The notes under the pieces were generated by a model that was not told the origin of the DNA, made no database searches, and was given only the letters and a program-made list of their open reading frames with translations. Source: Paenibacillus polysaccharolyticus (lineage in GTDB: Bacteria > Bacillota > Bacilli > Paenibacillales > Paenibacillaceae). From it: DNA of 64,000 nt. Below are positions 37,778 through 41,270 of this stretch, piece after piece. Position 1 is the first letter of the stretch, and every line of letters starts with the position of its first letter. Location: the NCBI RefSeq assembly GCF_900102085.1, contig NZ_FMVM01000002.1, positions 62,001 through 126,000 on the forward strand. Reading direction: 5' to 3'. The translations under genes and the position numbers were made by a program.

Positions 37778-37865
37778 AATTTATACCGCCTACGCGTTCA
37801 CCTCCTTAAGATGGATTAAAGGAAAATATCCACAGTAACTCTTTTGTGAAAATAAGCATAACAAC

Positions 37866-37901
37866 AATTTGCCCAATGTGCAAATTTACTCATTGTGCAA
37901 A
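37866..37901. promoter_or_regulatory. Tandem TetR operators
   Basis: TTTGCCCAATGTGCAAA (37868-37884) and TTTACTCATTGTGCAAA (37885-37901), two 17-bp sites back to back; the first is an inverted repeat TTTGC-N7-GCAAA, the second has one changed base. They start 91 bases upstream of the tetR start. Confidence 0.65.
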
Positions 37902-38223
37902 TTTTTAACGTGAATGAATATCCAATAATAGTTTATTAATATGCACCTTATTTTGATTTGAAATTTGTACTTTATAGACACAGTGCATGCTTTGATGCTC
38001 TTTGGATTTCATCCCTGTAAATTGTTTGAATTATTCGTAAACCACCATCAGAGAACTATATAGACAAATGGAGAAACGTTTTTTCGAAAAAGTATGGCTT
38101 CATTAGGAAAGTATATCGATTAAATCAATACAGAAGGATAGAGGCTGAAGTTAAAATATAACAGTCATGACTTTATCTATAATTACGTGAGAAGTGGACT
38201 TGAATAAAAGAGGGGGCATATTT

Positions 38224-38326
38224 ATGCAGAAAAGTTTGATCTCAAGTGAAGAACGCTGAAGTTGACTTTAAAGGTTATGATGAACAGTTCATTCCTGATC
38301 TAATAAAAATAAAAAATAAATTTTAA
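38224..38326 (+). pseudogene. Short gene remnant with frameshift
   Basis: AGGGGG is followed at good distance by ATG 38224, but the frame stops after 11 codons. Shifting one base continues into a clean frame (VKNAEVDFKGYDEQFIPDL) that stops at 38326. Joined, it would be a peptide of about 33 residues. The LISVKNAEVDFKGYD pattern faintly resembles the first strand of ABC ATPases, but this is too short to assign. Confidence 0.25.
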
Positions 38327-38390
38327 AATATCCCTTGATTTTTCGGGAAACGTCTGATAGTGTAATACCTGTGATTTTGGAAAGTTGATT

Positions 38391-38638
38391 TATCAATATG
38401 AATTAGAGCTTTCCAGCAGATAATTTTTGACCACTTCTACCAAGGAGTTAAGGCCATACGGACAGCCGGGTCAAATGCCGATTGGCAACTTCTGTTGCCT
38501 TATTGATTGAGTTCAAAGCTCAAATTTTATAAGTTGGTTACTTTACAACCAGTGCATCTGCACATCAACTTGTGAAACGGTCAATAAGAGTGGTAAAGGC
38601 GAATTATTTGCTATATAGACTCTGATCCAATATTGATA
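38391..38638 (+). ncRNA. Large structured RNA, class not established
   Basis: A nested set of helices that I can pair by eye: TATCAATAT (38391-38399) with ATATTGATA (38630-38638); ATTAGAG (38402-38408) with CTCTGAT (38620-38626); AGCAGATAATT (38415-38425) with AATTATTTGCT (38602-38612); ACCACT (38430-38435) with AGTGGT (38589-38594). Inside are hairpins GGCAAC-TTCT-GTTGCC (38484-38499) and TTGAG/CTCAA (38507-38523). A three-way junction is closed by AAGTTG (38531-38536) and CAACTT (38566-38571), holding GTT/AAC and GTGC-ATCT-GCAC stem-loops. It is not coding in any frame. Followed downstream by a terminator. Its size and complexity bring to mind the raiA-motif RNAs of Bacillota, but I cannot confirm this. 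It could be an independent ncRNA or the leader of the spermidine operon. Confidence 0.7.
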
Positions 38639-38724
38639 TACATGAAGAAGCTTTCCGCTGAAGGGGTTCTTATGGACTTTTTTGGTCAAGGAGTCTTCAC
38701 GTCTTTTTTATGATGTATATCGAC

Positions 38725-38779
38725 AAGCAAGTGTGATGGTGTGCGCAAAAGTGCGACATTTTTCACCTTGCTTTTTTTA
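38725..38779 (+). terminator. Terminator or attenuator in the spermidine-operon leader
   Basis: AAGCAAG-T-GTGA pairs with TCAC-CTTGCTT, enclosing a smaller CGC/GCG hairpin, and is followed directly by T7. Lies 118 bases before the carboxynorspermidine synthase ATG, with no protein gene upstream on this strand. Confidence 0.7.
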
Positions 38780-38896
38780 TTGTATCAGGAGCGGGTGGAC
38801 GTTGCATAATGAAACAATACAACTGCGAACGTCTTGGAATTTTACGAAAAAAACAAAAACTAAAAAACCTGATTATGGGGATAGGAGAATGAGAAA

Positions 38897-40141
38897 ATGG
38901 GAAAAGCACTAATCATCGGCGCCGGCGGCGTGGCTTCTGTAGCAGTACACAAATGCGTTCAAAACAGCGAGGTTTTTGAAGAAATCTGTATCGCAAGCCG
39001 TACCAAATCCAAATGTGATGATCTGAAAGCAAAATTGGATGGCGGCAAAACAAAAATTACAACAGCTCAAGTGGACGCGGACAATGTAGAAGAGCTGATT
39101 GCATTGATCAACGAGTTCCAACCGGATATCGTAATGAACTTGGCGTTACCATACCAGGATCTGACGATCATGGATGCTTGCTTGGCTACGAAAACAAACT
39201 ACATGGATACAGCAAACTATGAGCCGGAAGATACGGCAAAATTCGAATATAGCTGGCAATGGGATTACAAAGAGCGTTTCGAAAAAGCAGGCATCACTGC
39301 ATTGCTGGGTAGCGGATTTGACCCTGGCGTAACGGGCGTATTCTCCGCATACGCATTGAAACACTATTTTGACGAGATCGAATATATCGATATCCTCGAT
39401 TGCAATGGCGGCGACCATGGTTACCCATTTGCTACCAACTTCAACCCTGAGATCAACATTCGTGAAGTTTCTGCAAACGGCAGATACTGGGAGAATGGTG
39501 AATGGATCGAAACTAAACCGATGGAAATCAAACGTGTGTACGACTTCAAAGAAGTTGGCGAAAAAGATATGTACCTGTTGTACCATGAAGAGCTGGAGTC
39601 TCTGGCGAAAAATATCCCTGGCTTGAAACGTATCCGTTTCTTCATGACATTTGGTCAAAGCTATCTGACTCACCTGAAAGCTCTGGAAAACGTAGGCATG
39701 ACTTCCATCGAGCCGATCGAGTTCGAAGGAAAACAAATCATTCCTTTGCAATTCCTGAAAGCTGTTCTGCCTGATCCGGCGTCCCTCGGACCTCGTACAG
39801 TAGGTAAAACGAACATCGGTTGTATCTTCAAAGGTAAAAAAGACGGTCAAGACAAAACATATTATGTGTACAACATCTGTGATCACCAAGAGTGCTATAA
39901 GGAAGTTGGTTCCCAAGCGATCTCTTACACAACTGGTGTACCGGCAATGATCGGTGCGGCTATGGTGATGACAGGAAAATGGAACAAACCAGGCGTATAC
40001 AACGTGGAAGAGTTCAACCCGGATCCATTCATGGAAGAACTGAACAAATGGGGACTTCCTTGGGTAGAAGACTTCAATCCGGTTCTCGTGGATGAGCTGC
40101 CAGAAGAGTCCAAAGCAAAAGAATCGGAGCTTGTTCGCTAA
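38897..40141 (+). CDS. Carboxynorspermidine/carboxyspermidine dehydrogenase (saccharopine dehydrogenase family)
   Basis: 414 aa. Condenses aspartate beta-semialdehyde with putrescine (or diaminopropane) and reduces the product with NAD(P)H to carboxyspermidine (or carboxynorspermidine), the first step of the decarboxylase-independent-of-SAM spermidine route. N-terminal Rossmann motif ALIIGAGGVASVAVHKC, SRTKSKCDDL, then MNLALPYQDLTIMDACL and GSGFDPGVTGVFSAYA, characteristic of this family. AGGAGA lies 8 bases upstream of the ATG. The decarboxylase gene follows after one base. A hairpin terminator and a structured RNA lie upstream and may control it. Highly biased codon use (GGC/AAA, CTG) suggests good expression. 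Confidence 0.93.
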   Translation: MGKALIIGAGGVASVAVHKCVQNSEVFEEICIASRTKSKCDDLKAKLDGGKTKITTAQVDADNVEELIALINEFQPDIVMNLALPYQDLTIMDACLATKTNYMDTANYEPEDTAKFEYSWQWDYKERFEKAGITALLGSGFDPGVTGVFSAYALKHYFDEIEYIDILDCNGGDHGYPFATNFNPEINIREVSANGRYWENGEWIETKPMEIKRVYDFKEVGEKDMYLLYHEELESLAKNIPGLKRIRFFMTFGQSYLTHLKALENVGMTSIEPIEFEGKQIIPLQFLKAVLPDPASLGPRTVGKTNIGCIFKGKKDGQDKTYYVYNICDHQECYKEVGSQAISYTTGVPAMIGAAMVMTGKWNKPGVYNVEEFNPDPFMEELNKWGLPWVEDFNPVLVDELPEESKAKESELVR

Positions 40142-40142
40142 C

Positions 40143-41270
40143 ATGCGGTTCGAGCAATTACCGACACCCTGTTTTGTTGTTGACGAAGGTCTGATTGAGA
40201 AAAACTTGAAAATCCTGAACGGTGTAATGCAGCGTACAGGAGCGAAAATCGTGCTTGCGCAGAAGGCGTTCTCCATGACGGCGATGTATCCGCTTATTGG
40301 AGAATACTTGAGCGGTGCGACTGCGAGCGGTTTGTATGAAGCGCGTCTTGGTCACGAAGAGATGGGCAAAGAGAATCATGTCTTTGCTCCGGCTTTTCGT
40401 GAGGAAGAGATGGATGAGATTGTTGCGATCTGTGATCACATCATTTTTAATTCCTTTTCCCAACTGGCAAAATTCAAGGATAAAGCACTGCAAGCGGGCT
40501 GTAAGGTTGGTTTGCGTGTAAACCCGGAATGCTCCACTCAGGAAGGACATGAGATCTATGATCCGTGTGCTCCAGGTTCACGTTTCGGCGCGAAGCAGGA
40601 GGATTTCCGTGCAGAGTTGCTTGAAGGGGTATCTGGACTGCACTTCCACACGCTGTGCCAGCAAAACTCGGACGACTTGGAAACAACGTTGAATGCATTT
40701 GTTGAGAAGTTCGGACAATGGTTGCCGCAGATGGAATGGATTAACTTCGGCGGAGGACACCATATTACCCGTGAAGATTACGACATCCCAAGACTCGAAG
40801 CTTGCATTAAACGGATGCAAAATGATTATGGTCTGGAAGTGTACCTGGAGCCGGGAGAAGCGGTTGCACTTAATGCAGGTTATCTGGTGACTTCCGTACT
40901 GGACTTCCACAAGAATGGCATGGATATTGCGATTTTGGATACTTCTGCAACTTGTCATATGCCAGATGTTCTGGAGATGCCGTATCGTCCGCCATTGATT
41001 GGATCGGGTGAAGTGGGCGAGAAAGCTCACCTGTATCGTCTAGGTGGTCAAACATGTCTGTCTGGTGACGTGATTGGCGACTATTCATTCGATGAGCCTT
41101 TGAAAGAAGGCGACCGTCTCGTATTTGAAGACATGGCGATCTACTCCATGGTTAAAACCAATACGTTTAACGGCATGCCGCTTCCTGCCATTGCGGTTAA
41201 ACGCAAGGATGGAGATTGCGAAGTTGTACGTGAATTCGGATATCAGGATTTCAAAATGCGATTGGCATAA
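40143..41270 (+). CDS. nspC: Carboxynorspermidine decarboxylase NspC
   Basis: 375 aa PLP enzyme of the alanine-racemase/ornithine-decarboxylase fold (group IV). Decarboxylates carboxyspermidine/carboxynorspermidine to spermidine/norspermidine. The PLP lysine is in VLAQKAFSM (about residue 41), phosphate loop INFGGGHH (about 200-207), EPGEA (about 239-243), and the C-terminal catalytic segment ATCHMPDVLEMPYRP with the conserved Cys/Asp. Starts one base after the dehydrogenase stop; the ribosome site GGAG lies inside that gene. Ends at a strong terminator. With the preceding gene it forms a complete two-step operon from putrescine to spermidine. Confidence 0.94.
   Translation: MRFEQLPTPCFVVDEGLIEKNLKILNGVMQRTGAKIVLAQKAFSMTAMYPLIGEYLSGATASGLYEARLGHEEMGKENHVFAPAFREEEMDEIVAICDHIIFNSFSQLAKFKDKALQAGCKVGLRVNPECSTQEGHEIYDPCAPGSRFGAKQEDFRAELLEGVSGLHFHTLCQQNSDDLETTLNAFVEKFGQWLPQMEWINFGGGHHITREDYDIPRLEACIKRMQNDYGLEVYLEPGEAVALNAGYLVTSVLDFHKNGMDIAILDTSATCHMPDVLEMPYRPPLIGSGEVGEKAHLYRLGGQTCLSGDVIGDYSFDEPLKEGDRLVFEDMAIYSMVKTNTFNGMPLPAIAVKRKDGDCEVVREFGYQDFKMRLA

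What the first reader, a model, noticed from the sequence alone, without database searches (positions are those of the whole stretch)
38391..38638. Large structured RNA before the spermidine operon
Four nested long-range helices (9, 7, 11 and 6 bp) close, in correct order, over two hairpins and a three-way junction with perfect complementary stems (listed in the feature). Such a layered set is hard to explain by chance in a 248-base non-coding segment. It matches no riboswitch class I can identify (not lysine, SAM, T-box, TPP, cobalamin or guanidine types). It may be a raiA-motif-like RNA, or a new regulatory leader for polyamine synthesis.
Basis: seen in the sequence. Interest (0 to 1): 0.85.

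Follow-up and report, generated by a model that had tools for sequence, protein, structure and literature searches.

The report
Widespread polyamine-gene riboswitch candidate
A large RNA element with a conserved predicted fold is encoded just ahead of genes that make or import polyamines in many Bacillota bacteria, and it likely senses a polyamine such as spermidine and is predicted to shut those genes off by ending transcription early.

Summary
The four nested helices are in the sequence, the segment folds better than 200 of 200 shuffles (z -5.4), and the structure covaries in relatives. It is not raiA. Its middle 54 nt match Rfam RF02440, "SpF59 sRNA (ldcC RNA)", but that is an optional side domain: no Rfam family matched the core of about 125 nt, and 27 of 150 testable loci lack the side domain. 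Of 160 loci with downstream DNA, 158 have SpeD, Orn/Lys/Arg decarboxylase, carboxy(nor)spermidine synthase or PotA within 1.1 kb on the same strand (Pfam/NCBIfam 111 of 126 first ORFs). A terminator follows in 76 of 97 loci tested. Its 5' arm complements the P5/P7 3' strand and covaries with it (-13.7 against -10.3 kcal/mol permuted, 0 of 5000). I read it as a transcription-terminating riboswitch for a polyamine, most likely spermidine. Position, structure and antiterminator are shown by sequence; ligand and off-direction are inferred. It differs from the SAM-I-variant spermidine riboswitch. No paper describing it was found; most subscription journals and preprints were not searchable.

The parts
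38376..38638 (+). whole aptamer-like RNA element (5' hairpin/closing helices to end of the closing 3' strand); the 5' end is not mapped
38379..38414 (+). 5' hairpin GGAAAG (38379-38384) / CTTTCC (38409-38414); its loop pairs with the 3' tail
   Evidence: sequence; loop-tail pairing supported
38391..38408 (+). 5' strands of the outer closing helices (9 bp: 38391-38399; 7 bp: 38402-38408)
38620..38638 (+). 3' strands of the outer closing helices (7 bp: 38620-38626; 9 bp: 38630-38638)
38415..38425 (+). P1 5' strand, 11 bp with 38602-38612
38602..38612 (+). P1 3' strand
38428..38481 (+). optional side domain = Rfam RF02440 SpF59/ldcC RNA; stems 38428-32/38469-73, 38433-38/38443-48, 38452-54/38465-67; possible CGG/CCG pseudoknot 38459-61/38478-80 (hardly varies, so untested)
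38484..38499 (+). P2 hairpin GGCAAC/GTTGCC
   Evidence: 6 of 6 pairs with two-sided changes
38500..38506 (+). P3 5' strand TTATTGA, 7 bp with 38581-38587
   Evidence: nearly invariant; one compensated pair each in L213 and L214
38581..38587 (+). P3 3' strand TCAATAA
38507..38523 (+). P4 hairpin TTGAG/CTCAA
38531..38571 (+). P5 (38531-35/38567-71) enclosing P6 (38536-39/38547-50) and P7 (38552-55/38560-63)
   Evidence: P7 weakly paired as aligned
38560..38572 (+). P7/P5 3' strand GCACATCAACTTG: switching strand, complementary also to the terminator 5' arm
38588..38622 (+). conserved 3' core GAGTGGTAAA..GCTATATAGACTC; GAGT 38588-91 / ACTC 38619-22 pairing crosses P1 and competes with the 7-bp closing helix
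   Evidence: invariant; compensated to GAGC/GCTC in L213
38725..38778 (+). intrinsic terminator hairpin (38725-38773) and U run
38728..38744 (+). terminator 5' arm CAAGTGTGATGGTGTGC, antiterminator partner of 38560-38572
   Evidence: -17.5 kcal/mol for this locus, L004
38897..40141 (+). gene predicted to be regulated: carboxy(nor)spermidine synthase (saccharopine-dehydrogenase family)
   Evidence: NF043000, 9.3e-125, 417 bits, below its 800-bit cut-off
40143..41270 (+). nspC, carboxynorspermidine decarboxylase (start chosen by eye within ORF 40092-41270)
   Evidence: TIGR01047, 484.6 bits, cut-off 409, for 40158-41267

Best explanation
This is a conserved RNA element encoded ahead of the carboxyspermidine synthase-nspC operon, one of a family found ahead of polyamine genes, and it is predicted to be the operon's leader and to work as a transcription-terminating riboswitch that likely binds a polyamine, most likely spermidine. 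Shown by sequence: a pseudoknot-capable RNA of about 250 nt (a core of P3-P7 plus a 3' block, with an optional SpF59 side domain), same-strand position ahead of SpeD, Orn/Lys/Arg decarboxylase, carboxy(nor)spermidine synthase or PotA genes, an intrinsic terminator between RNA and gene, and covarying complementarity between the P5/P7 3' strand and the terminator 5' arm. Inferred: when polyamine is plentiful the folded core holds the strand GCACAUCAACUUG in P5/P7, the terminator forms, and the operon is off; when polyamine is scarce that strand pairs with the terminator 5' arm (antiterminator) and transcription reads through. Untested: ligand identity, direct binding, and direction of the switch.
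For: Gene association: the first downstream ORF of 126 loci (of 163) gave 46 AdoMet decarboxylase, 29 Orn/Lys/Arg decarboxylase, 23 carboxy(nor)spermidine synthase and 13 PotA (111 of 126). By my own motif scan of the 1.1 kb after the RNA 157 of 163 (the synthase motif is loose); with L014 (read) and without three loci that end within 100 bases of the RNA, 158 of 160. Of seven Bacillota hits found only by the core model, all seven precede SpeD or Orn/Lys/Arg decarboxylase; one of them, L201, repeats a locus in the model. Next ORF same-strand in 140 of 158 loci, against 92 of 140 for the ORF upstream. Structure. Terminator in 76 of 97 loci. Antiterminator: -13.73 against -10.27 +- 0.31 kcal/mol permuted, 0 of 5000, n=66; CARGY in 48 of 76 linked arms against 6 of 87 other terminators from 52 of the same loci, and duplex energy -13.83 (n=68) against -5.96 (n=76). 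Where the P5 strand reads GCTTG, 5 of 7 arms carry YARGC and none YARGT; where it reads ACTTG, 42 of 59 carry YARGT. Ligand logic (established pathway knowledge): SpeD, the decarboxylases, the SAM-independent carboxyspermidine route and the Pot importer share polyamine as product or cargo, so SAM or an amino acid is a poorer common ligand. Pneumococcal F59/srn235 lies between SP0915 and SP0916 (PMC3395615 and PMC12323649, passages), and SP0916 is arginine decarboxylase (PMC7990898, passages), the place expected of a terminated leader.
Against: No binding, transcription or expression data were available here. RNAfold of the whole window leader favours the terminated form without ligand, so the on state is not explained by energy alone. 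21 of 97 loci showed no terminator at my threshold; the search stopped 20 nt past the called ORF start, so early ORF calls may hide some, which I did not check. In at least one counted locus (L039) the hairpin picked is probably not the real terminator. Eleven of 59 ACTTG arms carry neither motif and 6 carry only YARGC; three of the five GCTTG matches (L088, L151, L158) look alike. L104 and L138 precede genes with no sign of polyamine function. 119 of 163 loci were found with a pattern that fixes the 3' block, so its invariance there is partly selection. Related sequences are not independent, so permutation counts are not probabilities. Twelve genomes of the genus have nspC without this RNA.
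Confidence: 0.72

Rival explanations
1. A protein-binding attenuator: the same leader and terminator, but an RNA-binding protein (perhaps polyamine-dependent), not the RNA, senses the metabolite.
For: A large, strongly conserved RNA with a terminator and antiterminator would suit a protein site too.
Against: One architecture serves four gene types and is found in 18 of 266 sampled genera. I did not search for a protein gene shared by the carriers. Size and pseudoknots are usual for metabolite riboswitches (own knowledge).
Confidence: 0.13
2. A trans-acting small RNA (as Rfam files SpF59) that happens to sit near polyamine genes.
For: Rfam type is 'Gene; sRNA'; F59 is listed as a pneumococcal sRNA.
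Against: 158 of 160 loci have a polyamine gene within 1.1 kb on the same strand, with a terminator whose arm covaries with the RNA. A short transcript is also what a terminated leader yields.
Confidence: 0.06
3. A riboswitch for a non-polyamine ligand: decarboxylated SAM, SAM, or an amino-acid precursor.
For: SpeD uses SAM (46 of 126 first ORFs), and the known spermidine riboswitch is a SAM-I variant (PMC10853860, passages).
Against: The window's operon makes spermidine without SAM (pathway knowledge), and PotA imports polyamines; no SAM family matched.
Confidence: 0.08
4. A raiA-motif-like RNA.
For: Large structured non-coding RNA element in Bacillota.
Against: No raiA match.
Confidence: 0.01

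Closest known systems
Rfam RF02440 SpF59_sRNA (ldcC RNA)
   Same: Its 54-nt model matches 38428-38481 over all 54 positions. All 18 of 398 Bacillota genomes with it also have my core model.
   Different: It covers only a side domain, is filed as an sRNA gene, and misses members without the domain (7 of 25 core-positive genomes; no RF02440 hit in the 8 loci).
Spermidine riboswitch (SAM-I variant; PMC10853860, passages seen)
   Same: Controls polyamine genes (speE, speB, speD, ldcC); a transcriptional off switch with terminator and antiterminator.
odc1 and potE motifs (PMC8632094, passages seen)
   Same: RNA motifs near polyamine-related genes; odc1 has a pseudoknot.
   Different: odc1 incorporates a uORF; by eye I saw no conserved uORF here and did not test for one. 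[quoted passage not shown]
Pneumococcal F59/srn235/Spd_sr49
   Same: Lies between SP0915 and SP0916 arginine decarboxylase; by its name the source of RF02440.
   Different: Listed as an sRNA; I did not align the pneumococcal sequence itself.

Membership tests
Rfam RF02440 SpF59/ldcC RNA | score above the gathering cut-off | tested here: met
   74.4 bits against 37.2
raiA motif (RF03072) | match to its covariance model | tested here: not met
   no raiA row in the whole-window gathering scan or the E<=10 scan of 37800-39200
SAM-I-variant spermidine riboswitch | SAM-I-type aptamer | tested here: not met
   no SAM family
SAM-I-variant spermidine riboswitch | position ahead of polyamine genes | tested here: met
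riboswitch (general) | conserved structured aptamer domain with covariation | tested here: met
   P7 weak and P3 nearly invariant as aligned
riboswitch (general) | cis position ahead of functionally related genes | tested here: met
   158 of 160 loci; transcription start not mapped
riboswitch (general) | expression platform with mutually exclusive structures | tested here: met
   (sequence evidence only)
riboswitch (general) | direct, selective ligand binding that changes gene expression | not testable with these tools
   needs in-line probing or single-round transcription

The most novel reading that the evidence does not exclude
A previously undescribed and widespread riboswitch class for spermidine or a close polyamine, a general polyamine feedback switch of Bacillota, controlling four unrelated routes (SAM-dependent synthesis, the carboxyspermidine route, basic amino-acid decarboxylation, and import) through one P5-strand antiterminator; so far known only as a 54-nt 'sRNA' fragment.
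Probability: 0.6. Interest if true: 0.9.

Novelty: new variant of a known kind. Interest (0 to 1): 0.8.

Why it matters
The 2023 paper on the SAM-I-variant class says that earlier evidence for polyamine riboswitches was unconvincing and reports a class of rare variants (PMC10853860, abstract and passages). A common class with a near-exclusive gene association and a visible switch mechanism would make polyamine sensing by RNA directly testable in many gut and soil bacteria. It would also turn an sRNA entry in Rfam into a regulatory leader with named target genes, and its ligand could help to assign the decarboxylases under it.

Tried and rejected
raiA and SAM families: no match. Stand-alone sRNA: my first impression from some reverse-strand loci was wrong; those RNAs also precede polyamine genes. 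P1 in members without the RF02440 domain: the crude region test was not significant. GAGT/ACTC never varies, and P3 hardly, in A2 and A3, so neither support nor oppose them; only L213 (GAGC/GCTC and one P3 pair) and L214 (one P3 pair) do, while L211 and L212 lack the usual P3 5' strand. The RNAalifold consensus leaves P1 out, since P1 crosses GAGT/ACTC, and offers a local AGUA/UGCU pairing instead. L213 antiterminator: its CAAGTAC matches the P5 strand but overlaps the terminator stem by about two bases only, so I do not count it. A scan of viral contigs with the 3' pattern found 0. Four of the twelve genomes with nspC but no RNA were searched near nspC for a diverged copy with filters off: none. 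In one search the script took the first motif match only; one search replaces those counts. The Fisher value printed used hand counts; one search gives 3e-4 on 36/6/0/5, leaving out 6 arms that carry both motifs. Dropped rows: L033 (no 3' anchor in my regex); 37 of 163 loci not given to Pfam (27 of L001-L030, and loci without a usable ORF within 900 bases); L144 and L151 from A2 (64 representatives to 62); 8 of 69 representatives from A3, after L068, L069, L096, L162 and over-long ones had been set aside; 17 of 163 loci that my segment parser could not split.

Full report
Observation. RNAfold of 38376-38640 gives -78.8 kcal/mol; 0 of 200 dinucleotide shuffles fold as well, z -5.41. The minimum-energy structure holds the outer helices and P1 but not P3; the centroid holds P3.

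What Rfam knows. A scan of the whole window at gathering scores found one match: RF02440 SpF59_sRNA, described as 'Streptococcus sRNA SpF59 (ldcC RNA)', at 38428-38481, 74.4 bits against 37.2. A permissive scan of 37800-39200 found besides it only three chance-level rows, none of raiA or SAM. RF02440 is 54 nt; the conserved part runs on for about 140 nt.

Relatives. RF02440 was found in 48 of 99 related genomes and in 18 of 398 Bacillota genomes, 12 of 266 genera. Of 164 loci, 163 carried the 3' anchor. By a fuzzy test 123 have the RF02440 domain, 27 lack it, and 13 have too little upstream DNA. In eight of those lacking it Rfam at gathering found only a tRNA. So RF02440 describes an optional side domain.

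Structure. A2 (62 sequences) with my named structure: 88.2% of cells pair against 82.7 +- 0.3% after shuffling; cells with two-sided changes 245 against 83; 33 of 63 pairs with such a change against 20.1; covariation 0.171 against 0.090; each 0 of 500 shuffles. Sliding the partners by 1-3 columns drops pairing to 32-46% and such cells to 65-117, but leaves 20-32 pairs with a two-sided change, so that last count says little. The inner side-domain stem, P2, P4, P6, part of P7 and part of P1 carry two-sided changes; P3 and GAGT/ACTC hardly vary. As aligned, P1 pairs in 67-73% and three of the four P7 pairs in 46% of cells. A3 (61 sequences, core only, with members lacking the side domain): 90.7 against 89.2%, 36 two-sided cells against 12.0, 11 of 29 pairs against 5.3 (also 11 at one of six slides), P7 62%. 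Duplex tests of cognate against permuted partners: P1 -8.71 against -6.29 +- 0.30 (0 of 5000, n=40), not significant in 19 members without the side domain (1760 of 5000); outer loop-tail helices -11.59 against -8.53 +- 0.27 (0 of 5000, n=94; also 0 of 5000 in the 73 that remain without L001-L030, the set from the window's genus; a few of its relatives stay in). L213 and L214, found by the model and not in it, each keep P3 with one compensated pair, and L213 turns GAGT/ACTC into GAGC/GCTC; L211 and L212 lack the usual P3 5' strand.

Genes. The next ORF downstream is on the same strand in 140 of 158 loci, the one upstream in 92 of 140. I gave the first downstream ORF of 126 of 163 loci to Pfam and NCBIfam (L001-L030 thinned to three): 46 AdoMet decarboxylase, 29 Orn/Lys/Arg decarboxylase, 23 carboxy(nor)spermidine synthase, 13 PotA, 111 of 126. 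Most of the other 15 seem to be wrong ORF choices: a motif scan of the 1.1 kb after the RNA finds one of the four genes on the RNA's strand in 157 of 163 (52 synthase, by a loose motif, 51 SpeD, 37 decarboxylase, 17 PotA). Three of the six misses have under 100 bases left, L014 is a synthase on reading, and L104 and L138 are true exceptions ahead of other genes. The core covariance model R1 found 25 of 398 Bacillota genomes, 18 of 266 genera, including all 18 with RF02440. The seven extra loci all precede SpeD (L210-L213) or Orn/Lys/Arg decarboxylase (L201, L202, L214) and have no RF02440 hit; L201 repeats L143, which is in the model. In the window the operon is carboxy(nor)spermidine synthase (NF043000, below its strict cut-off) and nspC (above its cut-off).

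Switch. Between RNA and gene, 76 of 97 loci have an intrinsic terminator of -8 kcal/mol or better; in the window it is 38725-38773 with a U run. The 5' arms of these terminators repeat CARGT, complementary to the conserved P5 3' strand ACTTG. CARGY occurs in 48 of 76 linked arms and in 6 of 87 other terminators of the same loci; the duplex with the locus' own P7/P5 3' strand averages -13.83 (n=68) against -5.96 kcal/mol (n=76). Cognate partners beat permuted ones, -13.73 against -10.27 +- 0.31, 0 of 5000, n=66. Where the P5 strand reads GCTTG (7 loci), 5 arms carry YARGC, none YARGT and 2 neither; three of the five look alike. Where it reads ACTTG (59 loci), 36 arms carry YARGT only, 6 both, 6 YARGC only and 11 neither; 2 more loci have another P5 strand and 8 of the 76 could not be parsed. 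L098, L085, L118 and L142 show the pairing running on into the variable P7 strand. This is an antiterminator that shares a strand with the aptamer. In the window 38560-38572 pairs with 38728-38744 (-17.5 kcal/mol, L004).

Mechanism. Shown by sequence: structure, cis position, terminator, alternative pairing. Inferred: polyamine binding stabilises P5/P7, frees the terminator arm, and turns the operon off; low polyamine lets the antiterminator form. The four gene types share polyamine as product or cargo; the window's route does not use SAM (established pathway knowledge), so SAM is unlikely. RNAfold of the whole leader gives the terminated form, so folding order or ligand must account for read-through. 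A sigma-70-like promoter lies 5' of the RNA in 97 of 110 loci (L031 and later) against 51 of 110 after mononucleotide shuffling; this is weak, and I did not fix a start site in the window.

Within the genus, 47 of 60 genomes have the core (stricter filters) and 59 of 60 have an nspC match, 58 over its cut-off. Twelve have nspC at 517 bits or more and no RNA; four of these, searched near nspC with filters off, hold no diverged copy. In these genomes the RNA has been lost or never came with the operon.

Literature. Searches listed no paper on this RNA as a regulator of polyamine genes; the held library lacks most subscription journals and bioRxiv, and Rfam's '(ldcC RNA)' shows that someone has seen a link to a decarboxylase gene. 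Seen: passages of PMC10853860 (SAM-I-variant spermidine riboswitch), PMC3395615 and PMC12323649 (pneumococcal F59/srn235), PMC7990898 (SP0916 is arginine decarboxylase), PMC8632094, PMC11109978 and PMC11477304 (other RNA motifs); no paper was read whole.

Verdict. A conserved and widespread RNA element, most likely a regulatory leader; a new candidate riboswitch class for polyamines, not a member of the known spermidine class. Ligand and direction remain untested.

Noticed in passing
L185-L188 (upstream of nspC in RNA-less same-genus genomes): Twelve genomes of the genus keep nspC without this RNA; in L185 a promoter-like stretch, judged by eye, lies close to the synthase gene.
   Followed up: partly
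L211 1501-1642, L212 1501-1592: Two loci of one genus carry a reduced form without the usual P3 5' strand, keeping GCAAATATT, ACTTGTGAA and the 3' block, still ahead of SpeD.
   Followed up: partly
L104, L138: The RNA precedes genes with no sign of polyamine function; L104 is a MAG contig, the record of L138 was not shown.
   Followed up: partly
window 38379-38384, 38409-38414, 38651-38656: GGAAAG at the 5' end has two possible partners, the near CTTTCC and an identical far CTTTCC just past the RNA.
   Followed up: no
window 38640-38720: RNAfold puts another long hairpin between the RNA and the terminator.
   Followed up: no
L060: One copy sits in a contig labelled Salinivirgaceae bacterium (a MAG); transfer or misbinning not checked.
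   Followed up: no
L210, L211, L212: The SpeD motif is followed about 900 bases on by an Orn/Lys/Arg decarboxylase motif, so one leader may serve both steps.
   Followed up: no
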